Positions 565 through 12,754 of a stretch of DNA of 64,000 nucleotides are shown here, one piece after another; position 1 is the stretch's first letter, and each line of letters begins with the position of its first letter. The notes under the pieces are model-generated. The model had not been told where the DNA came from, did not search any database, and saw only the letters and a list, made by a program, of their open reading frames with translations. A program made the translations under genes and the position numbers. Source of the stretch: Lumbricus rubellus (Eukaryota; Annelida; Clitellata; Crassiclitellata; Lumbricidae); assembly GCA_945859605.1 (NCBI GenBank), contig OX243825.1, forward strand, positions 24,295,227 through 24,359,226, in the 5' to 3' direction.

Positions 565-1818
565 CTAAATGCTGCGCGTGAATATCTGGAAATGTGAGAG
601 TCCAGTGTTGGTTGGCTCAGCGGCGACCACATTCAATCTGTAAATTCTAAACGCGGTGCTAGTGGTTACTGAGAACTCCTGTGCGGTCGACCCAAGTGTA
701 GTAGTTGACGTTAGAAGCGTGGTAAACACCCCGCCAGTAGAGCCAGCGAGGTTCCAACTAGTGATTCGTTCCGTGTTACTAGCACGCCCACGCAGCCTGA
801 TTTTCCAGATACGCACACTAGCGGGGCACTGAATCTGTACCCAGGCTCCGGCGCCCTCTCCTGTAACCCACTCGTTTCCCGGCACTGTGGATACCTGGGG
901 AGCAAAAGTCATATACGGTTGATAGCTGGAACTGAAAACGCTGCTGGCGCTAGCCACAAATCCAGTCTGAGAGGAGTTGGCAGACATCGGTGGTATGTGG
1001 CCATCATAGCCGAGAATAGTCAAGGAATCCACATAGCTTTTCGTTACCGCGTCTTGGGGGTTTGTAGGCTCTGGCAGGTACTTAATGAAGTGGCCGTTCA
1101 TGGCAATATCCTTATGAATGGTAATGATGGGCGGAGAATCGGCATTACCGAACTGGCACACGTTTTGCCCGGCTGCTCGAACCATAAACCCATGTGTGGT
1201 TTCCAGAGTGACTGGCGTCTGAGCCTGACCAGTTGGAACGACAGCGAACTGGAGTTGGTTCTGAATGTTTCCTAACGCAAACGAAAAGCCTTTGCCATCG
1301 GTTAGATCGGTGCAGCCAAGAAGTCTGACTGTGTTAGATCCTACATTCAGGCGTAGATCACCGGTCATGGTGTCACCAGTCTTTAGCACGCGAAGAACGT
1401 CCTGTGCATCCACGTACTGTTTATTCGTCAGATAGCTAGGACCCGATGGAACTGTATTATTATTGGTGGTACTATCGGTTATCATCCCTACAAGCTGCGC
1501 CCAGCTGATGGCTTCATTACCGCTGTATAGAGGAGGGTAGGCCGTCGGCAGACCTTTGACCAGCTTACCACCCATGTTTATGTCACCGGTCATCGTTCCA
1601 CCACTCAATTGCAAATTGTCTTGATCGATGGTGTCGGCATATCCTTTTGTCGCAGCATCTGTATTTGTTGTGGGAATCCCCACTTCCGTAAGTCGAAACC
1701 CACCAGCAGATAGGATTCCCATCATAGTATCACCGGCCCTGCGCACGAGGTCAGCAGTGCTCAACTGACCGCCGCCGCTTGCGCCCTCAGAACTACTTCC
1801 ACCAAACTTATCAGGCAT
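565..1818 (-). CDS. Fibre/tail-fibre-like protein with GDTMTGDI-type repeats
   Basis: 417 residues. After a Gly/Ser-rich N-terminus come repeats of the type seen in phage tail-fibre shafts: GDTMMGIL (about residue 29), GGTMTGDINMGG (about 73), GDTMTGDLRL (about 148) and DIAMNGHFIKYL (about 239). Two are followed by the linked motif DAATKGYAD or DAVTKSYVD. From about residue 300 a different domain begins, with AWVQIQCP, WKIRLRGR and SWNLAGS. It looks like an F5/8-type C (discoidin-like) carbohydrate-binding beta-sandwich, so the predicted layout is a trimeric shaft with a receptor-binding head. It lies between the protease and the partial edge ORF in the virion run. The fibre call is strong from the repeats. 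The head-domain call is an inference. Confidence 0.8.
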   Translation of the reverse strand: MPDKFGGSSSEGASGGGQLSTADLVRRAGDTMMGILSAGGFRLTEVGIPTTNTDAATKGYADTIDQDNLQLSGGTMTGDINMGGKLVKGLPTAYPPLYSGNEAISWAQLVGMITDSTTNNNTVPSGPSYLTNKQYVDAQDVLRVLKTGDTMTGDLRLNVGSNTVRLLGCTDLTDGKGFSFALGNIQNQLQFAVVPTGQAQTPVTLETTHGFMVRAAGQNVCQFGNADSPPIITIHKDIAMNGHFIKYLPEPTNPQDAVTKSYVDSLTILGYDGHIPPMSANSSQTGFVASASSVFSSSYQPYMTFAPQVSTVPGNEWVTGEGAGAWVQIQCPASVRIWKIRLRGRASNTERITSWNLAGSTGGVFTTLLTSTTTLGSTAQEFSVTTSTAFRIYRLNVVAAEPTNTGLSHFQIFTRSI

Positions 1819-1870: not shown

Positions 1871-2245
1871 TTAGACGAGCGAGAGGACTATATCTTCGAA
1901 CTGGCGACCAGCAGTAAGCTCTCGAAGCACGTGCAGACATAAATGCCCACAGATCACATCATCGGGGCCCTGAAGTTGAAATGTCTGTGTCCGCAATGGA
2001 TGATTCAAATAACGAGTGATTTCTAGGGGTGGGTCTAATCCATAACTGTCAAAGTATATAGCAGCTGGACCCTTCTTCCAGTACGCCACCCAGTGAGTAC
2101 CACCACCAGATCCCGAGTCAAGGTTTACAATGCCACACTCAACGTTTTGTATCCTAGCTGGTAGACCATCGCGCATAAAGACGCCGCGAAAGTTGGGAAT
2201 TGTCCTGGCAGCGTTCTCGATGTCAAAGTTGCTCAGCGGCTTCAG
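1871..2245 (-). CDS. Adenain-like cysteine protease (maturation protease), -1 frame of upstream gene
   Basis: C5 peptidase of the adenovirus/Polinton type that cleaves virion precursors. Visible landmarks are a catalytic-type His in GTHWVAYW, an acidic residue in YFDSYGL, and the Gln and Cys in LQGPDDVICGHLC, which matches the adenain QGP..CG..C pattern. The first ATG in frame is at 2174-2176. Conserved-looking sequence continues upstream in the same frame (LSNFDIENAA, IPNFRGVF) to codon CTG at 2243-2245, with a stop a few codons further up and no other ATG. The full protease of about 124 residues is therefore best explained by -1 frameshifting from the preceding pX-like gene at the heptamer 2245-2251. 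A non-AUG start is the alternative. Confidence 0.85.
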   Translation of the reverse strand: MKPLSNFDIENAARTIPNFRGVFMRDGLPARIQNVECGIVNLDSGSGGGTHWVAYWKKGPAAIYFDSYGLDPPLEITRYLNHPLRTQTFQLQGPDDVICGHLCLHVLRELTAGRQFEDIVLSLV

Positions 2246-2766
2246 TTTTTTGAAAGATATAATCCGCTACCACTACACATAGGGCAACAACCACCAGTAG
2301 TCTGGCGCCCCAAGTACAAGCCAGAACCCTTCAGCTGTGTCTCAACCTCGCGATTGTGGCGCGCAGCTTCGGCATTCGCAGCGTCGTTAGCTCTTTTATC
2401 TAGTACAGTCTTCGCAATACCTGCTGCACCACCGGCCAGGGCGCCCGTCGCGCCTAACGCACCAAGTATCGTCGGAATCAGCGGAATGAGAGGAGCGAGG
2501 AATGGTAGGATCCCACCCATTTTGGTCATCATCTTCATCTGAGTCTTTGAGAAAATCAAATCAGCCCCGGCGCCCTCGCCCTTTTTCTTCATGATGTGCG
2601 AAATTTGCCGTTTTGTGAGTCCGAGTTTGTCAGAGCCATGAAGCTGCTCACGCGAAAGTCGAAGAGTGACACCATTTCCATCACGAGCGGCCTTAGCTAG
2701 GGTCTCCTTTTGACCTTTTGTCAGCGTCAATCCGAAGGGGGAATAACCAGCAGTCGATTGTGCCAT
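2242..2766 (-). CDS. pX-like hydrophobic minor virion protein
   Basis: 174 residues. The N-terminal half has repeated short basic/amphipathic motifs (LTLTKGQKETLAKAA, LTKRQISHIMKKK, IFSKTQMKMM), a pattern I associate with an uncharacterised Polinton/adintovirus virion protein compared with adenovirus pX. A Gly/Ala/Leu-rich hydrophobic stretch follows (about 84-118, PFLAPLIPLIPTILGALGA), then a charged helix. The C-terminus holds two GSGLYL motifs (about 148 and 167) around a Cys-rich CCPMC. LKGSG and CSGSG resemble adenain cleavage sites. The stop codon sits directly behind the slippery heptamer, so the gene may also make a pX-protease fusion. The family name is tentative and the gene itself is secure. 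Confidence 0.75.
   Translation of the reverse strand: MAQSTAGYSPFGLTLTKGQKETLAKAARDGNGVTLRLSREQLHGSDKLGLTKRQISHIMKKKGEGAGADLIFSKTQMKMMTKMGGILPFLAPLIPLIPTILGALGATGALAGGAAGIAKTVLDKRANDAANAEAARHNREVETQLKGSGLYLGRQTTGGCCPMCSGSGLYLSKN
2245..2251 (-). promoter_or_regulatory. Candidate -1 ribosomal frameshift site AAAAAAC next to UGA
   Basis: On the minus strand the pX-like reading frame ends TCA AAA AAC TGA. A-AAA-AAC is a canonical X-XXY-YYZ slippery heptamer in the correct phase, and the zero-frame stop follows it directly. Slipping one base back continues at CTG AAG CCG, which is the protease frame. A GCCGC word (2236-2240) four bases past the heptamer could pair with GCGGC (2183-2187) about 50 bases downstream as part of a stimulatory structure. 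Frame and heptamer are seen directly. Use of the site is inferred. Confidence 0.65.
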
Positions 2767-2826: not shown

Positions 2827-4149
2827 TCAGACGACTACTTTGAACTTAGTACCATCTGAATCCAGTGACAGCAATCTGTCGGATATGAGAACAGAATACG
2901 CAGTTGTATCCGCTGGGGCATTAGCACCAAATTTCGCCTCTATCCTGATCGAGACCGTAGCAGCCTCCTTCAGTCTCTCAGACTGTCGGCGGACGTCGAA
3001 CACGAAGATGGGGAAGAGGTCGACGAACTCGATCGGGGTCACCTGATTGGAGGATTCCGCACCCTCTATGCCGTAGAACTCTTCCTTGAAGTCCTTCAGT
3101 GCTTTATAGGCACGCGAAATTTGCATTTGCGTGAAGTTCAGCTCTGCGACTAAGTTTGGATAGCGGACGGTGTTTAGGAACACGGAAATGTTCTGCACCT
3201 GTATGTGGTCAAAGAGAGCTGGATTTGATGTTTGGCTCTGGGATCGGGCAGTCTGGAAGCCTACGAGAAGCCATCGAGGTTTCTCAGCACCTGACTTGAC
3301 GCCGAGTGGCCAGGTGAAAGTCGTCAATGGCGCCACCGCGATGCTGTTGCTATACATGGCACGAAACCCCACTGGAATCTGGATCTTGTTTTCGATTTGT
3401 TTGGTGAGAATGTTGTCATAGTGCAGTGAGGGTTTAACGTGCGGCATCATCCAGGTGAGTCTAGTTAAATTAATTCGTCCGTTCGGCACTGGCACCGGAT
3501 TTTGTGCGGCGCCGTTATCAACAGCACGAAAGATGGCATCAGCGTCGTCTTTTCGTGAGAGAATCAATGAGTGCGTAGCACCGTATATCACCTTCCGGTA
3601 GTCATTACAGAAGCCAAACAGGTGCTTTAGTGGCACACAGAACGAAAACGTCCCGGCATCGTTGGGCTTAACGATGATCATAGTACGGCGGGCTTCCCAA
3701 CCAGTGTTTGCCGAAGCTGCAGCAGCCGTGGTATCCTTTTGCCAACACATGTTTAGCCCCTCGGCTTTGCTGAAGTCGTCACCATAAGTCAGCATGCCCT
3801 TCATGGTCGTCGCTTGACCCGGGTCCGAGATGTCTTCTATGACCTCGTTATTCATTTTATATCGGATCTGCGAGAACATGAACGGTATCCCATTGTTGAT
3901 TAGCGACACCCGGGACTCAGCAGTATATGGCACACCGGTGGATATTAATTGTCCCTCAACAAGGAGGTAGCTCATTGAGGGCTGGAGGTACACAGCCTGG
4001 GCCTGAGTATCAATCCGAATATCCTGCGCATTGTTGATTGCGCTTATGTTTGTCGGCTCGTAAGCCTCGTATTCATACGACTCGATGCTTTCATCGTTTG
4101 GCAGCGACTCGCCAATATTCAAAATATCACTTGCGGCGTCAACCTCCAT
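2827..4149 (-). CDS. Major capsid protein (double jelly-roll, hexon-like)
   Basis: 440 residues starting at ATG 4147-4149. The sequence matches the Polinton/adintovirus major capsid family as I recognise it: the block FCVPLKHLFGFCNDYRKVIYG (about residues 170-190, ending the first jelly-roll), SLILSRKDDADAIF, RWLLVGFQTARSQSQ and ALFDHIQVQNISVFLNTVRYP. Late residues include FDVRRQSERLKEA. The protein should form trimeric pseudo-hexameric capsomers of an icosahedral capsid, packaged by the ATPase and processed or accompanied by the protease, pVI-like and penton-like products encoded beside it. The frame is fully intact. The N-terminus (to about residue 30) is acidic. Confidence 0.88.
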   Translation of the reverse strand: MEVDAASDILNIGESLPNDESIESYEYEAYEPTNISAINNAQDIRIDTQAQAVYLQPSMSYLLVEGQLISTGVPYTAESRVSLINNGIPFMFSQIRYKMNNEVIEDISDPGQATTMKGMLTYGDDFSKAEGLNMCWQKDTTAAAASANTGWEARRTMIIVKPNDAGTFSFCVPLKHLFGFCNDYRKVIYGATHSLILSRKDDADAIFRAVDNGAAQNPVPVPNGRINLTRLTWMMPHVKPSLHYDNILTKQIENKIQIPVGFRAMYSNSIAVAPLTTFTWPLGVKSGAEKPRWLLVGFQTARSQSQTSNPALFDHIQVQNISVFLNTVRYPNLVAELNFTQMQISRAYKALKDFKEEFYGIEGAESSNQVTPIEFVDLFPIFVFDVRRQSERLKEAATVSIRIEAKFGANAPADTTAYSVLISDRLLSLDSDGTKFKVVV

Positions 4150-4196: not shown

Positions 4197-4736
4197 TTAA
4201 AGTATCGAACCTAAAATTGGGATATTGTTAAAAGGGCTATTGGGACCTAAGAGCAGACCCTTTCCAGCACGAGATCGCTTTGCCGCCGGAAGAGTTTTGA
4301 ATCCAGATCCAGCTATTCGGCTGTTTATGTCTGGATACGTGGCAGAAACCTGTTGTTGTGGAACTACAGGCACATTATTGCGTGCGAGTTGTTGTAAGAA
4401 ATCAACAGACTTTTGTGATAGAACTTGCTCGAGTGGTTTAGGGAGCTTCTTCGCTGCACCCGCAGAGGCGGCGGCTGTTGCAGCGCGTCTGGCCTTCACA
4501 ACATCAACGATCTGCTTCACTGCACTAGCGGTTGTCGCACCCGCCTTCGCCACGTTCCCGACAACATCGGCAACATTTTTTATCGTATCTTTATTAGCAG
4601 ATAGAAAGTTCCCAGCAGACCCAATAGCGCGTGTAACGTTTGCCATACTAGGGATCCAATCGAAAAACCCACTTCCGACTACATAGCGCCGGCGCCTTTT
4701 TGCCGATCGACGTGCGCTACCTGTAAATACGAACAT
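4197..4736 (-). CDS. pVI-like minor capsid protein with capsid-tail motif
   Basis: 179 residues. The N-terminus is strongly basic (RRSAKRRRRYVVGSG), followed by an amphipathic Ala/Val-rich region (about 25-90, with NVADVVGNVAKAGATTAS) like the membrane-active region of adenovirus pVI. A Pro/Gln-rich linker and a C-terminal tail with GPNSPF and NIPILG follow. The same tail ends the PLA2 protein encoded at 7346-7957. VVGSG (about 19-23) and IAGSG (about 140-144) fit adenain cleavage patterns. On this reading protease cleavage would trim both ends of a cement/lytic protein bound inside the capsid. The homology is inferred from composition, motifs and position next to the MCP. Confidence 0.72.
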   Translation of the reverse strand: MFVFTGSARRSAKRRRRYVVGSGFFDWIPSMANVTRAIGSAGNFLSANKDTIKNVADVVGNVAKAGATTASAVKQIVDVVKARRAATAAASAGAAKKLPKPLEQVLSQKSVDFLQQLARNNVPVVPQQQVSATYPDINSRIAGSGFKTLPAAKRSRAGKGLLLGPNSPFNNIPILGSIL

Positions 4737-5545: not shown

Positions 5546-6595
5546 TTATACGAGGAGACCTCGGTTCAATTGGACCGCGAGTTCTTTTGTAATAGCGCCT
5601 ATACGCATTAACTCATCGAGGATAGCCGAGATTTCGTCGTCTAGGCCCGTGTTGCCAGCTGATTTACTCGCCACAAGCAACTGAAGTCTCTCAACCAGGG
5701 TATCTGGATTGTTGTAGAATTGAATAGCTCCGCCTCGGATCAGCTGGTGCTTCTTACTTTTTCGTCCGTGAACCGGCATACCCGCTAAGTCGACGAGCTT
5801 TTTGAAAGTCTCAATCGCGGTAGATGTGTACTGCTTGGTCTTTACAAAGCGTTTCGTCAGCAGATCATATAGTGAATTGTCTGCCGAAGCTTCGAACACC
5901 AGGTTACCACCATCGAAAGCCCGCAAGTGGCCGGCCTGCAGTGCAACAGGGTCAACGATGAGGTTACCGAACTGGTTACCGCGTAGTTTCAGCATTGATG
6001 TGGCGATGCCACTCCCTGTCTTTGGCCGGGTGAGCTTGTTGCCTTCTGCTAAAAGTTTTAAACGTTTTCGATATTCGCCTAGCGCTTTTAACGCCACGTT
6101 GAGGCGCTTTGTAGTTTCTGGATCCCCCTTTGCCTTCTTTTTTTCTGACCCCAATGTGTGTCGGTTATAATAACTTACGGCTTGCACTACATCTGGTATA
6201 GATGCAAGATCGAGCTCAGATGGTGGATCGAAGCCATTTTTCCGGATAAGGTCGATGGCGAGCCCCTGGTCTGGATTCAATATCAATGTCTGTGGCAACG
6301 GCGGTGCTGGAAGTGCCGGTTGTGGTTCATTGAACAAAGCCGCAACCGGATTAAAGTTTGCTTCCGCCGCGATATGAGCTGGTAGTTCTTTGATGGCTGA
6401 GGCGACCCTGGCCAACTCAGCAGCTTGTTGGTTCGCTTGCTCGGTTACCGGCTGAAAAAGTTTTGCAGCATCATACTGGAGGGTGGCATCTCCGAGCTTT
6501 TCGGCTTCAAATCTTGTTTGCAGACGCTTCCTACGCGATAGATAATCCTGCACGAGCGCGTCGCGCGTCTTCTTATTCTTCACATCAGTCCACAT
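5546..6595 (-). CDS. Conserved Polinton protein of unknown function
   Basis: I chose the ATG at 6593-6595 (MWTDVKNKKTRDALVQDY), which sits 29 bp beyond the ATPase stop. A longer frame reaches 6667 but would overlap the ATPase and lacks family-like sequence. About 349 residues: a charged helical N-terminus (SRRKRLQTRFEAEKLGD), a Pro-rich linker (LPAPPLPQT), a Lys/Arg-rich segment (KRLNVALKALGEYRKRLKLL), then a C-terminal block with GNQFGNLIVDP, SLYDLLTKRFV and IETFKKLVDLAGMP. I recognise this last block as recurring in Polinton-type elements, without a known function. KTGSG mid-protein could be a protease site. The position between ATPase and penton suggests a structural or morphogenesis role. 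Confidence 0.7.
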   Translation of the reverse strand: MWTDVKNKKTRDALVQDYLSRRKRLQTRFEAEKLGDATLQYDAAKLFQPVTEQANQQAAELARVASAIKELPAHIAAEANFNPVAALFNEPQPALPAPPLPQTLILNPDQGLAIDLIRKNGFDPPSELDLASIPDVVQAVSYYNRHTLGSEKKKAKGDPETTKRLNVALKALGEYRKRLKLLAEGNKLTRPKTGSGIATSMLKLRGNQFGNLIVDPVALQAGHLRAFDGGNLVFEASADNSLYDLLTKRFVKTKQYTSTAIETFKKLVDLAGMPVHGRKSKKHQLIRGGAIQFYNNPDTLVERLQLLVASKSAGNTGLDDEISAILDELMRIGAITKELAVQLNRGLLV

Positions 6596-6624
6596 CGTGT
6601 TTATATGATATCTACATCTATACT

Positions 6625-7308
6625 CTAAATCGATGATTTCGGTATGTAGAATCGATCGAATCCACATCGATACTTGCCATCGAACGCCTTTGAACTTTGA
6701 TCAATCACAGCGAACCCGTAAGGCTGATCCCAGCAATGGCGGCAGAACTCACGGAACTCATCATATGGCATGTCACCACCTACAAACGTGTCGTGAATAG
6801 CCCGTGTGTTTTTACCGTCTTGGGTGAAGATAATTATAAAATTGGCATTATCACGGATTGCCTGCTTCGGAATCCGAAAGTAGTTCTGCGTAAGATAGAA
6901 GCAGTCAGCCCCACCATGCCGACCCCGGGTGAAATACTTCTCTATAGGGCCCTGCTTTTCTAGCATCACATCGTCGAAGATGATTATCGCGCGTTCGTTT
7001 GGATCAAGGCTCTCAACAGGTATTATGTCGTCTGAGTTGCCGTGAAACGAGGCCACTTCTTTACGCGCTACGTCCGCGAGCGCCGCTGCCCAATCGCGCA
7101 AGAACTGATACTTCTCTTGCCCAAGCGATTTACTGTACAGATGGAGCCGGTCGAAGTTGAGGTAGCCTTTCTTAAGAAGTAGGTTGAGTAGTAGATTCGT
7201 TTTTCCGCACCCTGAGGGGCCTACCACTATACAGCGGATACTACCCGGGAGCAACCAATGGTGATGTTGCTTCTCTTTTTGCTCGAGGTCAAAGTTTGTA
7301 ATCTCCAT
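6625..7308 (-). CDS. Genome-packaging ATPase (FtsK/HerA type)
   Basis: 227 residues. Walker A is GPSGCGKTN at about 33-41 and Walker B is AIIIFDD at about 107-113. An Asn/Gln-containing sensor-like segment follows (FYLTQNYFRIPKQAIRDNANF, about 137-157). This is the A32/HerA-like ATPase that drives DNA into the preformed capsid in Polintons, adintoviruses and PRD1-like viruses. The length is typical of the short Polinton form. Its start codon lies only 37 bp from the oppositely directed PLA2 start, so the two share an extremely short divergent control region. The frame is intact. Confidence 0.9.
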   Translation of the reverse strand: MEITNFDLEQKEKQHHHWLLPGSIRCIVVGPSGCGKTNLLLNLLLKKGYLNFDRLHLYSKSLGQEKYQFLRDWAAALADVARKEVASFHGNSDDIIPVESLDPNERAIIIFDDVMLEKQGPIEKYFTRGRHGGADCFYLTQNYFRIPKQAIRDNANFIIIFTQDGKNTRAIHDTFVGGDMPYDEFREFCRHCWDQPYGFAVIDQSSKAFDGKYRCGFDRFYIPKSSI

Positions 7309-7345
7309 TAGAACCGTGGATCAATTCGAATATTATTATGCGAGA
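7309..7345. promoter_or_regulatory. 37-bp divergent intergenic region between ATPase and PLA2 genes
   Basis: Start codons of two opposite genes (ATPase at 7306-7308, PLA2 at 7346) are 37 bp apart. This is the only place in the visible element where transcription diverges, so promoters for both must lie here or inside the opposite coding sequence. I see no clear TATA box on either strand apart from short AT runs (ATATTATTATG on the plus strand near 7329). Confidence 0.4.
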
Positions 7346-7957
7346 ATGTATTGCCTTAGATGTAAACGTCATACCGAGACTTCAAATGAGAAGGTGGAGA
7401 CTATGCGCAACGGGCGTCCCGCTAAGAAGGGGACTTGCGCCGTATGTGGTGCTAAAAAGTCCCAGATCCTTAGTTCGAAGACAGGAGGCTCGATTCTAAA
7501 CAGTGCGCTCAATGCCCTTCCATTACCAGAGATGCATATGAGACTTCCTTCCGGAATATCATCCGAGTCAGTGCCAGAAGGGTCGTTCCAAAATACCGGA
7601 AAGTATTCCTACTGCGGCCCATTCACGAAGCTCGATAAGCGGCTGTCTCAAGGGTATAGAGGTGTGAATAAGCTTGATGAGGCTTGCCTAAAACACGACG
7701 TGGCATATGCTGTCCATAGCGACACAGCTGGGAGAAATTTGGCTGATGATGTTTTAGCCGCGGCTGCATCGAAGATCGCTTTGACTGATGCCCCAGAGTG
7801 GGAGAAGAAGAATGCTCGAACGGTTGCCGCAATAATGTCTGCGAAGAGTCGCTTGGGTATGGGCGTTGGAGGTAAGCGTAAAAAGGGTGGAAAGGGTTTG
7901 ATACTAGGACCTAATTCTCCGTTTAAAAATATACCTATTTTGGGTGCTATACTTTAA
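7346..7957 (+). CDS. Zinc-ribbon / phospholipase A2 capsid protein
   Basis: I chose ATG 7346 over an upstream in-frame GTG at 7316. About 203 residues in three parts. First, a CxxC...CxxC zinc ribbon (C3, C6, C31, C34, with RNGRPAKKGTC between), of the DUF5679 type. Second, a parvovirus-VP1-like phospholipase A2: calcium-loop motif YCGPFTKLD (about 89-97) and catalytic DEACLKHDVAY (His117, Asp118). Third, a Lys/Gly-rich linker and a C-terminal tail with GPNSPF and NIPILG, nearly identical to the tail of the pVI-like protein. The PLA2 probably breaches the endosomal membrane during entry, as in parvoviruses. The tail probably anchors it in the capsid. Enzymatic motifs are seen; the role is inferred. 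Confidence 0.82.
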   Translation: MYCLRCKRHTETSNEKVETMRNGRPAKKGTCAVCGAKKSQILSSKTGGSILNSALNALPLPEMHMRLPSGISSESVPEGSFQNTGKYSYCGPFTKLDKRLSQGYRGVNKLDEACLKHDVAYAVHSDTAGRNLADDVLAAAASKIALTDAPEWEKKNARTVAAIMSAKSRLGMGVGGKRKKGGKGLILGPNSPFKNIPILGAIL

Positions 7958-7970
7958 ATATTCTCTTTAT

Positions 7971-8258
7971 ATGATGACGCTGCCTTCGGAAGAGCTAGTG
8001 AAGGAGGTTTGGGCTGGGTTGTGGGCCATACAATTTAACGCCAAACATGAAAAAATTCAGGGTCGCTGGGACTTTGGTGATATGGCTTCTCGATGTTTTG
8101 AATGTTGGTTTACAAAACCGGGTACTTTGAAATCTTTTGCGCGTGGAGTGCTTTCTGCCCCTATTGATATACGCGCTACTGCTGCACTACTTCCAGCTGA
8201 TACGGCTGACGCCTGTTGTAGATTTATAGCGTTATTGGAAAGGGTTCGAGATGAATGA
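7971..8258 (+). CDS. Small hypothetical protein upstream of integrase
   Basis: The open frame extends from 7944, but ATG 7971 (MMTLPSEELVKEVWAGLW) avoids overlap with the preceding gene and gives about 95 residues. The stop overlaps the integrase start by 8 bp, suggesting translational coupling or at least real gene packing. Visible features are a Trp-rich N-terminal half (VWAGLWAIQF, RWDFGDMASRCFECWF) and Ala/Asp-rich LLPADTADACCRF. I see no zinc or catalytic motif that I can name, and the function is unknown. Placement between capsid PLA2 and integrase gives little hint. Confidence 0.55.
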   Translation: MMTLPSEELVKEVWAGLWAIQFNAKHEKIQGRWDFGDMASRCFECWFTKPGTLKSFARGVLSAPIDIRATAALLPADTADACCRFIALLERVRDE

Positions 8259-9261
8259 CTCTAAACTATCAGCCATCTATTATTCACCTCGCGGGTACTG
8301 GCGTGGGTTGGCCGCGGTCAAGAAGCTGGCTGCAGCTGCGAAAGTTTCAGAGGCAGCTGCTCGCACATGGTTAAAGAGGCAAGCTGTGTGGCAGATATAC
8401 CTGCCTGCCCCACGATATATTCCACGCCCGATGTTCGATGAAGATAGACCGAACGCTGTGCACCAGGCCGATCTATTGTTTTTACCACATGATCGGGTTG
8501 GCCGAAAGAAGTACAAATACGCTTTAACGGTGGTAGATGTTGCCTCCCGATACAAGGAAGCCGAGCCTTTGACGGACAAGAGCGCGGCTGAAGTTGCGGC
8601 TGCTCTGGGTCGGATATACAAGCGTGGGCCTTTGACTTGGCCTCATCTCCTGCAGGTTGATGCTGGGCGAGAATTTATGGGCGCTGTGAATCAACTTCTG
8701 GCTAAACATAATGTTCGTGTACGACGAGGCGAGGTCGGTAATCATCGACAGCAAGGAATAGTTGAGCGCTTTAACCGTACTTTGGCTGAGCGACTCTTCG
8801 GCGCGCAGTATGCCCAAGAGTTACTGTTGGCTGCACACGGATCCCCGGAACGGTCGGCTGAGTGGGTGCGCGCTCTGCCTGAAGTTGTGGCTGCAATAAA
8901 TGATGAAGTGACTCGGCTGACTGGTCGAAAGCCTAATGATGCGATAAAGGCTACTTCGGTTGTGTCCGCACCATCACTGCCGGCTCATCGTGCGGTTGGT
9001 CTTCGTGAACCTTTACTAGATTCTTCCACTCTCCTGCGTTATCTGTATGCCCCAGGTGAGCTTGAGGGTGGCCGTCGTCGTGCGACTGACCCGGTGTGGT
9101 CGTTGACAATTCACACTGTTCGAAATGTTGTCCGGCAGCCAGGCCAGCCTACTCTTTACTACCTTGACGACGGGCCGGCTCGCGGGTTTGTGCGCGAAGA
9201 ACTTCTTATCGTTCCTCCGGGGACTGAGCTACCGCCTGATCGAGTTCTCAAGCGGCGTTGA
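8251..9261 (+). CDS. Retrovirus-type integrase (rve, DDE)
   Basis: 336 residues. An N-terminal helix-turn-helix-like region (VKKLAAAAKVSEAAARTWLK) leads into the Polinton-type junction LPAPRYIPRP. The rve catalytic core follows: D74 in HQADLLFL, D137 in LLQVDAGREF and E172 in QQGIVERFNRTLAERLF, which is D,D-34/35-E spacing. The C-terminus (about 270-330, DPVWSLTIHTVRNVVRQ, LYYLDDGPARGFVREELL) resembles the small beta-barrel/chromo-like end of Polinton integrases. It would catalyse insertion of the linear element DNA into host chromosomes. The end overlaps the convergent PolB gene by 14 bp. The frame is intact and all three catalytic residues are present. Confidence 0.92.
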   Translation: MNDSKLSAIYYSPRGYWRGLAAVKKLAAAAKVSEAAARTWLKRQAVWQIYLPAPRYIPRPMFDEDRPNAVHQADLLFLPHDRVGRKKYKYALTVVDVASRYKEAEPLTDKSAAEVAAALGRIYKRGPLTWPHLLQVDAGREFMGAVNQLLAKHNVRVRRGEVGNHRQQGIVERFNRTLAERLFGAQYAQELLLAAHGSPERSAEWVRALPEVVAAINDEVTRLTGRKPNDAIKATSVVSAPSLPAHRAVGLREPLLDSSTLLRYLYAPGELEGGRRRATDPVWSLTIHTVRNVVRQPGQPTLYYLDDGPARGFVREELLIVPPGTELPPDRVLKRR

Positions 9262-12200
9262 GTATGTACTCGATAGGTTCTGTGTGTATGCCATCGGGTA
9301 AGACTCGACGTTTGTCGTAGTATGCACTCAATCCTAGTTTTTCTTGATTATATGTCGTCATCCGCCCATTTCTCAATCTGAAACCTCGGTTCACAGCTCG
9401 GTCTTTTTTTCCTTCGAGGGCGGCTTTGAAACGATGCCAGGTAAGCTGGTTTTGGGCATGGGACATACCTTTGCTTGAGCATTTACTCGTCTTATCACTC
9501 TCGACAAAATGACATTTGCTGCAAATGACAGTGGCTCGGTGCCCGCTTGAGCATTCACTCACCATCTCACGCTCGACGAAATAACATTTACTGCAAAGGG
9601 CAATGGCTCGGTGCCCTTCAAACTCAAGCTTGAACAGTCCCGGTGTTCGGTTGCTGAAGGTGTCCCACGCCAGCCAGTCTTTCTTACAGTTCGCGAACTC
9701 GGCGGCAAGCTCGGGTTTCACAACCTCTTCTAGAGTGTCTGCGCTCAAAGCTAAGTACAGGCTATCGGTGTCCATCTGGATTAGCTCGAAATCTTGTCGA
9801 TCGATGAAGCGGTCCAGGAAGTCGTAGTAGAATTCCAATATTCTAAGTTTAGCCAGCTGGTAGACCGCAATGCCCACCTGGAAGGCGCGGTACATGGTCA
9901 CCTTGGGCTTGCGACTCGTTATCTCATAGGCCTCGCCTATTTCAGTGAGGTCGTCAAACCAGGCCGATCGTAATGCTTGATCCACCGTTTTTTCATCTTT
10001 GGTGTAGCTGACATTGGTGTGTCTTTCTACAGCTTCAATCAGCTTACCGTAAGCACTATTGCCTAGAAGTTTGAAGATTTCTGCAAACAGGGCGCTTTCT
10101 TTATCAATATCGCCAGTGCGTCGCGCTTCTGTTACTTTTTCGACGAACCAGGTGAAGATTTTTTCTGGTCGGTAGGTTATCGTGGTATAGACCGCTTGCA
10201 GCTCCAACCCGTGTTTGAGGAACCACAGTAACACTGGGGTATAGAGTAGGATTTCATCAGCCTCTAGGGTTCCTAGGAGTTTCTTGTCGGCCCCGCGTTT
10301 TCGGCCTGTTTGTTTTAAGTAATCCATCATCTCGATTGGAACGGCTTCTTCGGGCACCTCCTTATTCAGGAATAATGGGCACATCTCTTCGAACATGGCC
10401 CACAGATGTTTTGGTACAGCAGCTTTACACTTTACGAAGCCAAACAGCCTACCGGCTAGGATTGCTTTCCTCACCTCCGCTGCAGCCTTTACAGGATCTT
10501 TAAAGTCATGTACTTTCTCTTTTCCACAGGGCATGTCTTGTCCCATTGTGCTTAGGTAAAGCGCATTAGCGTCAAAACCTAATATACGCTTGCACAGTTT
10601 AGCTTCTGCGTATTTGTGGGAACGGATTCTCGTCACACCTGCTTCGTGATATCGTGTGAAGACGATTGAGGGTCCTCCTGTTACCGCCGCCTTCAGATGT
10701 GTGTAAGCTTCTTTGCTTGGAGCAAACAGTTTCTTTTCGGTCGTCCCCCTCAGAAGGTATTGCAGTGACACTCCGGGTAAGCTTACACAATCTTTAAATA
10801 TGTCTATACTATTCTCTCCGTAATAGGCTTTCATCTTCTCCAACGCCTCCACGAATGGGGATACATCAAGGTTGTTGTAGTGGCGCAGCCAGTCGGCGAA
10901 AGTCTTCATTCCACTTTCACGGAATACTCGCTTGCAGGCTTTCCATTCCTCCAATGTTAGTAAAAACCCGTCTTTAAGTTTCGAATACCAAGCGGGGTAA
11001 TCGGGTAGTCCTGGGTAGTCTAACTTATCTGCACTATCGAACCACTCATAAGGTAACCAAGACTTGGTCTGCTTACAACCGTAGGCCTTCACCCATTTGT
11101 CGTAGGAGGTGCTTGGGGCTATGTAGTTGATGACATCTAGGAACTTGAGTTCGTCCGTTATGAGAAATATGGTCTTCGATCCGTTTTTTGCCACTTTTAC
11201 CTTTTTACAGGTAGCGGCTAGCTGTTCGACGAAGAACTCTTTGATCAGATTAAGATCGTACTTTCCGGAGTTGAAGCCTAGTACAGGCACCTGGGCGCAC
11301 CAGTCGCGAATTTTCTGCTGCTGTCTTTTAGGGAGCATGTCGATGTCCAAAGGTATCCACCGGCGTTCCGCATCCCCCCTCAAGACCGCGGCGCGTCTCT
11401 GGATTTCGTTCACGAAAGCTGCACACAGAGCCTTAGGGTCTCGAATACATAGGTGAGTAGGTTGTGTTTCTACATTATCTCCAATCGACACAGATATCGC
11501 CACATGGGTGTTTTCGTACAAAAGATCCTTTGTCGCCTGGTGGCTTTTTGTCTTGTCCAAATAGGCTTCGAAGTCGAAAACAATGGCATGTGGATAGACC
11601 TCCGTTGTAGGCTTAAGGTTCAGATGTTTATACCCAGGGGCTTTACATTCCCAGGCAACTACCAAGTTATATCCAGCGTTCCGTATTTTAGCCTCTTGCT
11701 GCCGAGTTTTCTTCAGCAGCTCACGAGCGTTGCCGAGCTTGCAGTGGGCCGGACAGCCGTGAAAGTGACAACCGTGATATTGAAATACTGTTTTGGTTGT
11801 CGGCTCATAACCGTCCACTGGCGCTCCAGCAATCCAGCGCTCACCGCCATGTCCACAGAGGGCATGATGGACGTGAAGACCACGACTTTCCGCCTCGTAC
11901 TCCAACCAATCTACTGAGCCCTTGCTGGCGTTCGATTTCGGGTAGAATGCTTTTTCATAGGCCGATTGCGGGCGCTGGATACCTTCTCCCGGGCAACAGA
12001 CTTCCGTGACCCCTTTTGTGCACCGTTCTGCATGGCGATTAAGACTACAGGCCTGGGTGAATTGCTGGTTACAATGTCCGCAAGCGTACACGTTTGCCAC
12101 CCTCTTGAGATCAGTTATTAGGAATGCGTGGTCGTTATAGAAGCCGATGGTCATTGGTGGAGTTCCGATTGCTTCATAGTGGGCCGGTTGTCTTATGAGG

Positions 12201-12754
12201 TGCCAGGTGCCGTCCTCTCTTGGTTCGTATACACGAATACCAAATTTGAACTTTTCTTCAAACTTCTTGAGTTGATCCAACGCAATTTTTGACCAGCCGC
12301 CTTGTGGTTCCTCTGTGAGCGAGTAGTATGCCAGGGCCAACTGCTTCGCTTTTTCCGTGCAGCGATCGGCGCGTGCCCCCTGGTGGACTGCTATGCAGCG
12401 GAACAGACAAAGATTATCGATAAAGGTGTCCAAGGCATACATCCCCTTCTTTTGTCGCAGCCAGTCGGGTAGCTCCCCGGCTCCCAACAAAGGCTGGTCT
12501 GTCAGGATTACTTTTACTTGAACCGCCTTCCAACCGTAAAAGACCCATTTCGTATCGGGCCGCGCAATTGGCTCTACCTCCAGACGCCGGTCGTCCTCGC
12601 TCTGTAGATACGCTCGCGCGGCAGCCAGATTAGTGACAAGTGGACGACTACCCTTAGGCGTTGTATCTTGATCTATTATTTGTTCAGTTTCAATGTGCTG
12701 GATAAAGTATGAGTAAGTATATCTCAGGTAAAACGCTGTTTCCAGCGGTGCCAT
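9248..12754 (-). CDS. Protein-primed family B DNA polymerase (PolB)
   Basis: 1168 residues, intact. Order: a segment with FIDNLCLFRCIAVHQG (about 111-126); a C2H2/C2HC finger YACGHC...HAERC (about 223-245); a VSR-like endonuclease-type block VDGYEPTTKTVFQYHGCHF (about 313-331); exonuclease motifs FDFEAY (393-398), GFNSGKYD (493-500) and YNNLD (626-630); polymerase motif A FDANALYLSTM (727-737), motif B KLLGNSAYGK (895-904) and motif C MDTDSLY (994-1000). The terminal region SSKGM is preceded by a tandem duplicate (1047-1070 and 1071-1094) with extra CxxC pairs. It replicates the element from protein-bound ends. Its start overlaps the SAP-like gene by 65 bp and its end overlaps the integrase. 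Confidence 0.95.
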   Translation of the reverse strand: MAPLETAFYLRYTYSYFIQHIETEQIIDQDTTPKGSRPLVTNLAAARAYLQSEDDRRLEVEPIARPDTKWVFYGWKAVQVKVILTDQPLLGAGELPDWLRQKKGMYALDTFIDNLCLFRCIAVHQGARADRCTEKAKQLALAYYSLTEEPQGGWSKIALDQLKKFEEKFKFGIRVYEPREDGTWHLIRQPAHYEAIGTPPMTIGFYNDHAFLITDLKRVANVYACGHCNQQFTQACSLNRHAERCTKGVTEVCCPGEGIQRPQSAYEKAFYPKSNASKGSVDWLEYEAESRGLHVHHALCGHGGERWIAGAPVDGYEPTTKTVFQYHGCHFHGCPAHCKLGNARELLKKTRQQEAKIRNAGYNLVVAWECKAPGYKHLNLKPTTEVYPHAIVFDFEAYLDKTKSHQATKDLLYENTHVAISVSIGDNVETQPTHLCIRDPKALCAAFVNEIQRRAAVLRGDAERRWIPLDIDMLPKRQQQKIRDWCAQVPVLGFNSGKYDLNLIKEFFVEQLAATCKKVKVAKNGSKTIFLITDELKFLDVINYIAPSTSYDKWVKAYGCKQTKSWLPYEWFDSADKLDYPGLPDYPAWYSKLKDGFLLTLEEWKACKRVFRESGMKTFADWLRHYNNLDVSPFVEALEKMKAYYGENSIDIFKDCVSLPGVSLQYLLRGTTEKKLFAPSKEAYTHLKAAVTGGPSIVFTRYHEAGVTRIRSHKYAEAKLCKRILGFDANALYLSTMGQDMPCGKEKVHDFKDPVKAAAEVRKAILAGRLFGFVKCKAAVPKHLWAMFEEMCPLFLNKEVPEEAVPIEMMDYLKQTGRKRGADKKLLGTLEADEILLYTPVLLWFLKHGLELQAVYTTITYRPEKIFTWFVEKVTEARRTGDIDKESALFAEIFKLLGNSAYGKLIEAVERHTNVSYTKDEKTVDQALRSAWFDDLTEIGEAYEITSRKPKVTMYRAFQVGIAVYQLAKLRILEFYYDFLDRFIDRQDFELIQMDTDSLYLALSADTLEEVVKPELAAEFANCKKDWLAWDTFSNRTPGLFKLEFEGHRAIALCSKCYFVEREMVSECSSGHRATVICSKCHFVESDKTSKCSSKGMSHAQNQLTWHRFKAALEGKKDRAVNRGFRLRNGRMTTYNQEKLGLSAYYDKRRVLPDGIHTEPIEYILNAA
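9475..9618 (-). repeat. Two-copy 72-bp in-frame tandem duplication inside PolB
   Basis: Units 9475-9546 and 9547-9618 are head-to-tail, exactly 72 bp (24 codons) each and roughly 80 percent identical. Each encodes GHRA...CSKC.FVE....CSS. The duplication preserves the reading frame between the motif C region and SSKGM near the polymerase thumb. The divergence between units shows it is not a fresh assembly artefact. Confidence 0.9.

What the first reader, a model, noticed from the sequence alone, without database searches (positions are those of the whole stretch)
2183..2251. Programmed -1 frameshift probably links the pX-like protein to the viral protease
Seen: the pX-like frame ends TCA AAA AAC TGA on the minus strand. 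A-AAA-AAC is a textbook X-XXY-YYZ slippery heptamer in phase, and the zero-frame stop is the very next codon. A one-base backward slip enters exactly the protease frame. The only ATG of the protease ORF (2174-2176) lies after conserved-looking N-terminal protease sequence, which would be lost without the shift. A GCCGC/GCGGC complementary pair lies just downstream. Known: A-AAA-AAC drives gag-pro frameshifting in betaretroviruses such as MMTV. Inference: this DNA element uses a retrovirus-like strategy to make a low-dose pX-protease fusion. I do not know of this being described for Polintons.
Basis: partly seen in the sequence, partly recalled or inferred. Interest (0 to 1): 0.88.

Follow-up and report, generated by a model that had tools for sequence, protein, structure and literature searches.

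The report
Slippery frameshift makes Polinton protease
A virus-like DNA element carries a slippery seven-letter sequence exactly where its core-protein gene stops and its protease gene runs on in another reading frame, and relatives are inferred to keep the same layout, so ribosomes likely slip back one letter there to make a small dose of protease joined to the core protein, as some retroviruses do.

Summary
Confirmed: on the minus strand the pX-like gene of an otherwise open Polinton ends TCA AAA AAC TGA; A-AAA-AAC is in phase and the protease frame is open in -1. Its first ATG (2174-2176) would remove a predicted helix and most of a strand. It is not decay: 4 of 4 copies found in this genome keep it. 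Of 23 protease ORFs tested from elsewhere, 12 are compatible with a pX tail in the -1 relation (0 of 60 shuffles each); one fits +1, ten neither. Six full decodes give A-AAA-AAY beside a stop, there TAG or TAA instead of TGA. In 73 of 106 pX relatives KN stands 0-2 residues before the end, while its distance to the preceding GxGL motif varies. Two undegraded in-frame pX-protease fusions exist. Against: no stimulatory RNA structure found, other protease groups have their own ATG, and no relative's junction DNA, RNA or peptide was seen. Best reading: programmed -1 ribosomal frameshifting makes a pX-protease fusion, probably self-released at GSGL. Closest prior idea: a hypothetical Hexon-Adenain frameshift in adintoviruses. 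New variant of a known kind.

The parts
2242..2766 (-). pX-like core/minor virion protein gene, 174 aa, ends ...GSGLYLSKN and stop TGA
   Evidence: open ORF; relatives; relative P0156 (53% identical to the window pX) passes the Pfam Adeno_PX cut-off, 27.3 against 25 bits; the window's own pX has no such hit
2245..2251 (-). slippery heptamer A-AAA-AAC, in phase with pX
   Evidence: kept in 4 of 4 own-genome copies found; A-AAA-AAY in 6 of 6 full decodes of relatives, three with the same-contig partner and three with the closest other tail
2242..2244 (-). pX-frame stop TGA, next codon after the heptamer
   Evidence: the six decoded relatives have TAG (5) or, one codon later, TAA (1)
1871..2245 (-). 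maturation protease in the -1 frame, as read after the slip: 124 aa plus stop
   Evidence: open frame; 3,488 homologues with E <= 1e-3; model mean pLDDT 90.1, nearest solved fold adenovirus proteinase 1nln, Foldseek E 2.2e-7
2246..2266 (-). part of the -1 frame that overlaps pX upstream of the slip (RIISFKK); bounded upstream by a stop, no ATG
2174..2176 (-). first ATG of the protease frame (residue 31); a start here would drop predicted helix 13-22 and nearly all of strand 26-31, with near-invariant residues
   Evidence: weak start context (-3 T, +4 C) and 11 earlier ATGs counted from and including the pX start
2260..2271 (-). GSGL motif, last copy before the slip; proposed cleavage site (inference)
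   Evidence: G[SKAR]G[LIV] occurs in pX (2), 4197-4736 (1), 5546-6667 (1) and the PLA2-like ORF (1) of 14 ORFs scanned and not in the other 10; shuffled means 0.10-0.20 for these four
2183..2240 (-). downstream GCCGC...GCGGC pair (2240-2236 / 2187-2183); no evidence that it acts as a stimulator
2827..4149 (-). double jelly-roll major capsid protein, upstream of pX
   Evidence: Pfam PF21738, E 6e-48
6625..7308 (-). packaging ATPase, A32-like (context)
   Evidence: Pfam PF04665, E 1e-4, 22.3 bits, just under the cut-off of 22.8
8251..9261 (+). rve integrase (context)
   Evidence: Pfam PF00665, E 4e-11
9248..12754 (-). family B DNA polymerase (context)
   Evidence: Pfam PF03175, E 1e-19

Best explanation
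This Polinton is predicted to make its maturation protease by programmed -1 ribosomal frameshifting: most ribosomes would finish the pX-like core protein at TGA, and a minority would likely slip back one base on A-AAA-AAC and read on to give a pX-protease fusion of about 298 residues. Shown directly by sequence: the in-phase heptamer, the adjacent stop, the open -1 protease frame whose first ATG is internal, its preservation in 4 of 4 copies found of this element, the KN ending of most pX relatives, and natural in-frame pX-protease fusions. Deduced from relatives' proteins: the conserved -1 overlap and the A-AAA-AAY/stop junction. Inferred: that ribosomes, not RNA polymerase, do the slipping; that the yield is low; that pX carries the protease into the particle; and that the protease frees itself by cutting at the GSGL motif a few residues before the slip. 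It works like the gag-pro frameshift of betaretroviruses.
For: (1) Anatomy. (2) All 4 copies of this family found in the 787-Mb assembly keep TCA AAA AAC TGA and the open -1 frame; the other three differ from the window copy by 3, 22 and 35 substitutions (plus 0, 9 and 5 gap columns) elsewhere in the pX-PRO region. (3) I tested 23 protease homologues picked by eye because they reach upstream of PLSN (22 of the 120 listed, and P0243) against 40 pX tails that end in KN or KK: 12 are compatible with a pX tail in the -1 relation, from 11 of 12 or 12 of 14 up to 14 of 14 positions, 0 of 60 shuffles each; of these 12 only P0002 also has a (weaker) +1 fit. The stop is TAG in 5 and TAA in 1, so the slip site is kept while the stop changes. 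(5) Of 120 listed pX hits, 13 are paralogues and 1 a fusion; of the other 106, 73 have KN 0-2 residues before the end against about 0.03 expected per protein, 57 distinct tails, the residue before KN always one with a codon ending in A; 9 more fell in the KK class, 2 of these clearly degraded. The spacer from GxGL to KN is 1-8 residues in 69 of 73 and longer in 4, so the pair follows the frame switch, not a protein motif. (6) Fusions in one frame: P0168 and P0320; P0242 (degraded) and P0336 (weaker) similar. (7) The protease N-terminus before Met31 is near-invariant in the 32 sequences aligned and confidently folded. (8) A_AAA_AAC is listed among the shiftiest heptamers for mammalian ribosomes (PMC5009743, passage) and for MMTV in a table of gag-pro sites (PMC3835772, table passage).
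Against: No unusually stable RNA structure downstream: folding z-scores from -0.4 to 1.6, no H-type pseudoknot, hairpin matched by 19 of 200 shuffles. Of the 23 ORFs, P0048 fits a pX tail in +1 instead (13 of 14) and 10 fit neither. 24 of 106 pX hits end in neither KN nor KK: some are truncated or have lost the frame, but others, more distant (such as P0176, P0177, P0182, P0236), look intact and lack it. The 40 tails used were chosen to end in KN or KK, so that test bears on the overlap, not on KN itself. Other protease groups have a standalone ATG, and in one group (MPLSNFD) an ATG stands right before the conserved start. P0168 is one sequence on one contig and could be a homopolymer indel. 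The relatives' bases are inferred from proteins; no relative's junction DNA, RNA or peptide was seen. One search found no Pfam match for P0168, P0320 and P0336.
Confidence: 0.82

Rival explanations
1. Transcriptional slippage: RNA polymerase drops or adds an A in the A run, so part of the mRNA pool reads pX and protease in one frame.
For: The slip site is an A run (6 A in the window, at least 8 in two same-contig decodes); the in-frame fusions P0168 and P0242 have SKK where most pX tails have KN.
Against: A run of 6 A is short for slippage (recalled). KN (or AAY) after the run and the stop within 0-2 codons are kept in most, as ribosomal slip sites require and polymerase slippage does not (inference).
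Confidence: 0.08
2. Termination-reinitiation or a non-AUG start (CTG overlapping the TGA) makes a free protease.
Against: In five of six decoded relatives the overlapping codon is CTA or TTA and in the sixth CAG, poor starts. Reinitiation does not explain a conserved A-AAA-AAY.
Confidence: 0.05
3. A spliced mRNA joins pX to the protease frame.
For: Six GT...AG pairs could join the frames; the Lucilia cuprina gene model P0323 joins a PLA2-pX to a protease, perhaps by a predicted intron (the intron is a guess).
Against: All six have weak donors (4 of 9 consensus positions) and acceptors (5 of 12 pyrimidines). Splicing needs no fixed -1 relation or heptamer. PMC8097293 reports intronless ORFs in intact vertebrate Mavericks (passage).
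Confidence: 0.03
4. The break between pX and protease is an ordinary decay mutation or assembly error in this copy.
For: Homopolymer runs attract indels; in-frame fusions exist in relatives.
Against: 4 of 4 copies found are identical at the junction, the element's other main genes are open, and 12 relatives fit the same -1 relation.
Confidence: 0.02

Closest known systems
Betaretroviral gag-pro -1 frameshift (e.g. mouse mammary tumor virus, AAAAAAC; PMC3835772, passages read)
   Same: Same heptamer, structural protein upstream, protease downstream in -1, presumed low-dose fusion
   Different: Protease is a cysteine (adenain/Ulp1-like) enzyme in a dsDNA element; no pseudoknot found; zero-frame stop directly at the slip site; no pro-pol relay seen
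Hypothetical -1 slippage in adintovirus Penton and potential Hexon-Adenain ('Hexain') fusions (PMC11071296, passages read)
   Same: Same virus group, same protease family, virion protein joined to protease
   Different: There Hexon or Penton, with KnotInFrame as the method, in passages that show no alignment; here pX, with comparative evidence
Insect Mavericks with CAP (PLA2) and PRO as separate ORFs, Sf Maverick 1 and 2 (PMC5803895, passages read)
   Same: Its table lists CAP directly before PRO; most PLA2-pX relatives listed here end in KN
   Different: The paper treats them as two ORFs; the passages I saw do not mention frameshifting at this place
Adenovirus proteinase (adenain) with its 11-residue cofactor, PDB 1nln/1avp
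   Same: Predicted fold of the protease domain
   Different: Adenain is a separate gene product (recalled), 203-204 residues in these entries; this domain is 124 residues and has no full-length start of its own

Membership tests
Programmed -1 ribosomal frameshift site (X-XXY-YYZ type) | slippery heptamer in phase, upstream of a zero-frame stop | tested here: met
Programmed -1 ribosomal frameshift site (X-XXY-YYZ type) | overlapping open -1 frame coding a conserved domain without a start before the domain | tested here: met
Programmed -1 ribosomal frameshift site (X-XXY-YYZ type) | slip site and -1 relation conserved in relatives | tested here: met
   bases inferred from proteins, with exceptions P0048 and P0155/P0012
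Programmed -1 ribosomal frameshift site (X-XXY-YYZ type) | downstream stimulatory hairpin or pseudoknot | tested here: inconclusive
   none found in this one sequence; no relative DNA for covariation
Programmed -1 ribosomal frameshift site (X-XXY-YYZ type) | fusion product detected, depends on the heptamer | not testable with these tools
   needs reporter or peptides
Polinton/Maverick (adintovirus-like) | PolB, rve integrase, DJR capsid, packaging ATPase, adenain-like protease together | tested here: met
   ATPase just under the Pfam cut-off, protease by fold only
Polinton/Maverick (adintovirus-like) | terminal inverted repeats and target-site duplication | not tested
   an ORF of the element runs off the left end of the window; termini were not searched
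Adenovirus endoprotease, Pfam Peptidase_C5 | score above the family's curated cut-off | tested here: not met
   11.9 against 21.3 bits; hence named adenain-like by fold only
Adenovirus endoprotease, Pfam Peptidase_C5 | adenain fold with conserved His and Cys | tested here: met
   1nln, E 2.2e-7; H58 and C106 invariant in the 32 sequences aligned; their catalytic role is recalled
Adenovirus protein X (Pfam Adeno_PX) | score above the family's curated cut-off | tested here: not met
   window pX has no such hit; relative P0156 has 27.3 against 25 bits, P0121 only 13.4; hence 'pX-like'

The most novel reading that the evidence does not exclude
A-AAA-AAY frameshifting from a pX or PLA2-pX virion protein into the maturation protease is an old and widespread expression strategy of animal Polintons: a dsDNA counterpart of retroviral gag-pro in which the core protein carries a low dose of protease into the particle and the protease then frees itself at GSGL. 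The KN ending of PLA2-pX proteins, including those of the beetle Exocentrus adspersus, is its footprint.
Probability: 0.5. Interest if true: 0.86.

Novelty: new variant of a known kind. Interest (0 to 1): 0.74.

Why it matters
It would show that a dsDNA virus lineage uses the retroviral solution for dosing and packaging its protease, give Polinton annotation the missing protease N-terminus (many close homologues are called from the internal Met or as odd overlapping ORFs), and offer a peptide-level test, the pX-protease junction, for whether Polintons make particles. In the listings of the library searches (one search listed 20 of 41 papers, one search listed 10 of 11) and the passages that I opened, I saw no description of a pX-protease frameshift; the closest is PMC11071296.

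Tried and rejected
Viral contigs: protease alone and as alignment, PLA2-pX alignment and MCP gave no usable relative (L003 is a weak PLA2-like match that I did not pursue). Phage records: none. GTDB contigs: 2 loci; L001 has a standalone protease with ATG, L002 was not pursued. Rfam over 1800-2800: one weak match (SgrS, + strand, 16.5 against 37 bits). PHROGs: nothing useful. RNA structure as stimulator: not supported for this sequence. Splicing: weak. A folded model of the natural fusion P0168 showed a helix and a disordered linker before a confident protease domain, pLDDT under 50 over most of 67-136; I saw no sign of pX docking in the listing, but contacts were not computed. Copy divergence around the junction is uninformative, as the copies are identical over hundreds of bases there. 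Passages of PMC8363768, PMC10120064, PMC12567637 and PMC11071308 showed nothing on this junction.

Full report
What is there. The left 13 kb of the window is a Polinton: double jelly-roll capsid protein (2827-4149 -), pX-like protein (2242-2766 -), an A32-like ATPase (6625-7308 -), rve integrase (8251-9261 +) and PolB (9248-12754 -), all open. pX is followed by an open frame in -1 (1871-2266 -) that codes an adenain-like protease: 3,488 homologues, 120 of them listed, AlphaFold mean pLDDT 90.1, nearest solved structures adenovirus proteinases (1nln, E 2.2e-7). Pfam's own C5 model scores it below cut-off, so the family name rests on fold.

The junction. The pX frame reads TCA AAA AAC TGA; the -1 frame reads TTC AAA AAA CTG. 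The first ATG of the protease frame is residue 31. A start there would remove predicted helix 13-22 and nearly all of strand 26-31, with residues that are invariant or nearly so in the 32 sequences that I aligned (L11, P10, S12, N13, D15, F26-F30). Its context is poor and 11 ATGs precede it from and including the pX start.

Not decay. Four copies of this family were found in the assembly (150 of 1,437 first-look candidates were scored); 4 of 4 have the same junction and open -1 frame. Against the window copy, the others differ in the pX-PRO region by 3, 22 and 35 substitutions plus 0, 9 and 5 gap columns.

Relatives, protease side. Because an ORF caller extends the protease frame upstream when a start happens to lie there, the N-termini of some homologues are out-of-frame readings of pX. 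I tested 23 homologues picked by eye for such extensions (22 of the 120 listed, and P0243) against 40 pX tails ending in KN or KK. Twelve (P0001-P0005, P0007, P0009-P0012, P0015, P0016) are compatible, residue by residue under codon ambiguity, with a pX tail in the -1 relation, from 12 of 14 to 14 of 14 positions (11 of 12 in P0002 and P0004), with 0 of 60 shuffles each as good; P0002 also has a weaker +1 fit. One (P0048) fits +1, and 10 fit neither, among them the standalone ILPNK type. For the six of the 12 that fit fully, the two readings together give A-AAA-AAY, then TAG (5) or AGA TAA (1) (where the tail has KKN the script's printed heptamer is one codon early and I read it from the printed codons). 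Of 13 such length-matched pairs run, 3 decode as -1, one (P0155/P0012) as +1 and 9 have no decodable overlap, most because the protease protein starts downstream of the junction. P0012 alone is compatible with a normal pX tail in -1, so I think P0155 carries an upstream indel.

Relatives, pX side. One search found 153 pX hits and listed 120. I set aside 13 paralogues (ending GLLLGxNSPFxxIPILG or alike) and the fusion P0168. Of the other 106, 73 have KN within the last four residues (38 at the very end, 20 with one and 15 with two residues after it), 9 fell in the KK class (P0145 and P0153 clearly degraded) and 24 in neither, some truncated, others more distant and apparently intact. About 0.03 per protein would be expected. 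The residue before KN is always one with a codon that ends in A (57 distinct contexts; background 0.82 per residue, so about 1e-5 if independent, which related sequences are not). The spacer between the last GxGL motif and KN is 1-8 residues in 69 of 73 and 14-21 in 4; KK sits 2-4 residues before the (P)LSN motif in the 15 protease ORFs that I chose for that count. So KN/KK follows the frame switch and not either protein.

In-frame fusions. One search listed 120 of 347 hits; of the 19 that I read and P0168, P0168 and P0320 are continuous pX-protease proteins, P0242 is degraded, P0336 and P0328 less clear, and P0241 joins a PLA2 protein to a protease. P0168 could be a homopolymer indel; P0320 stands for five member sequences. 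The Lucilia cuprina model P0323 joins a PLA2-pX to a protease without the conserved start of the latter, as a gene predictor might do to bridge a frame change (inference).

Contrast. A second Polinton family in the same genome (146 of the 150 scored matches, 48-52% identity) has a protease with its own ATG. In 26 of its 26 fetched loci (L008-L033) the first Met lies before the conserved start, and in the two loci read for neighbours it follows PolB, not pX. So the frameshift is a property of one arrangement, not of all Polintons.

Mechanism. A_AAA_AAC is listed among the most shift-prone sites for mammalian ribosomes (PMC5009743, passage), and for MMTV in a table of gag-pro sites (PMC3835772, table passage). 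I found no downstream structure better than shuffles, so either the heptamer next to a stop suffices or the stimulator was missed. G[SKAR]G[LIV] motifs occur in four of 14 ORFs, pX and three others that include likely virion proteins. The last one ends three residues before the KN pair, and the equivalent stretch lies in or near the disordered linker in the model of the natural fusion. I propose that the protease frees itself there; this is inference.

Prior work. The held library (listings, and the passages that I opened) gave one related statement: PMC11071296 (passages) suggests slippage in adintovirus Penton and 'a similar relationship' for potential Hexon-Adenain fusions. PMC5803895 (passages) treats CAP and PRO of Sf Mavericks as separate ORFs. 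The founding adintovirus paper (PMC8502044) was not held, so I cannot say what it contains. The finding is therefore a new variant of a known kind, with good comparative support and no experiment yet. On re-checking I lowered the main confidence from 0.83 to 0.82 and raised transcriptional slippage from 0.07 to 0.08, because intact pX relatives without KN exist.

Noticed in passing
L008-L033 (own assembly): A second Polinton family in the same genome with well over 100 protease copies of 48-52% identity (146 of 150 scored matches); protease standalone with ATG in 26 of 26 fetched loci, after PolB in the two read for neighbours.
   Followed up: partly
4197-4736 (-) and 7316-7957 (+): Two ORFs on opposite strands share a near-identical C-terminal tail, GKGL(L/I)LGPNSPF(N/K)NIPILG(S/A)IL; the second has a PLA2-like domain and DUF5679.
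   Followed up: no
565-1818 (-): The ORF after the protease has a C-terminal F5/8 type C-like (DUF7402) domain, perhaps a fibre-like attachment protein (guess).
   Followed up: no
L004 against L007, around the junction: The two copies are identical from about -290 to +284 around the slip site, while 35 substitutions lie in the rest of the pX-PRO region; gene conversion or recent exchange is possible.
   Followed up: no
L001 (JAKSCW010000563.1): A Polinton-like contig sits in a MAG labelled Balneolales bacterium, probably eukaryotic contamination of the bin.
   Followed up: no
P0048; P0155/P0012: Two cases with an apparent +1 relation between pX tail and protease; indel or a different slip, not resolved for P0048.
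   Followed up: partly
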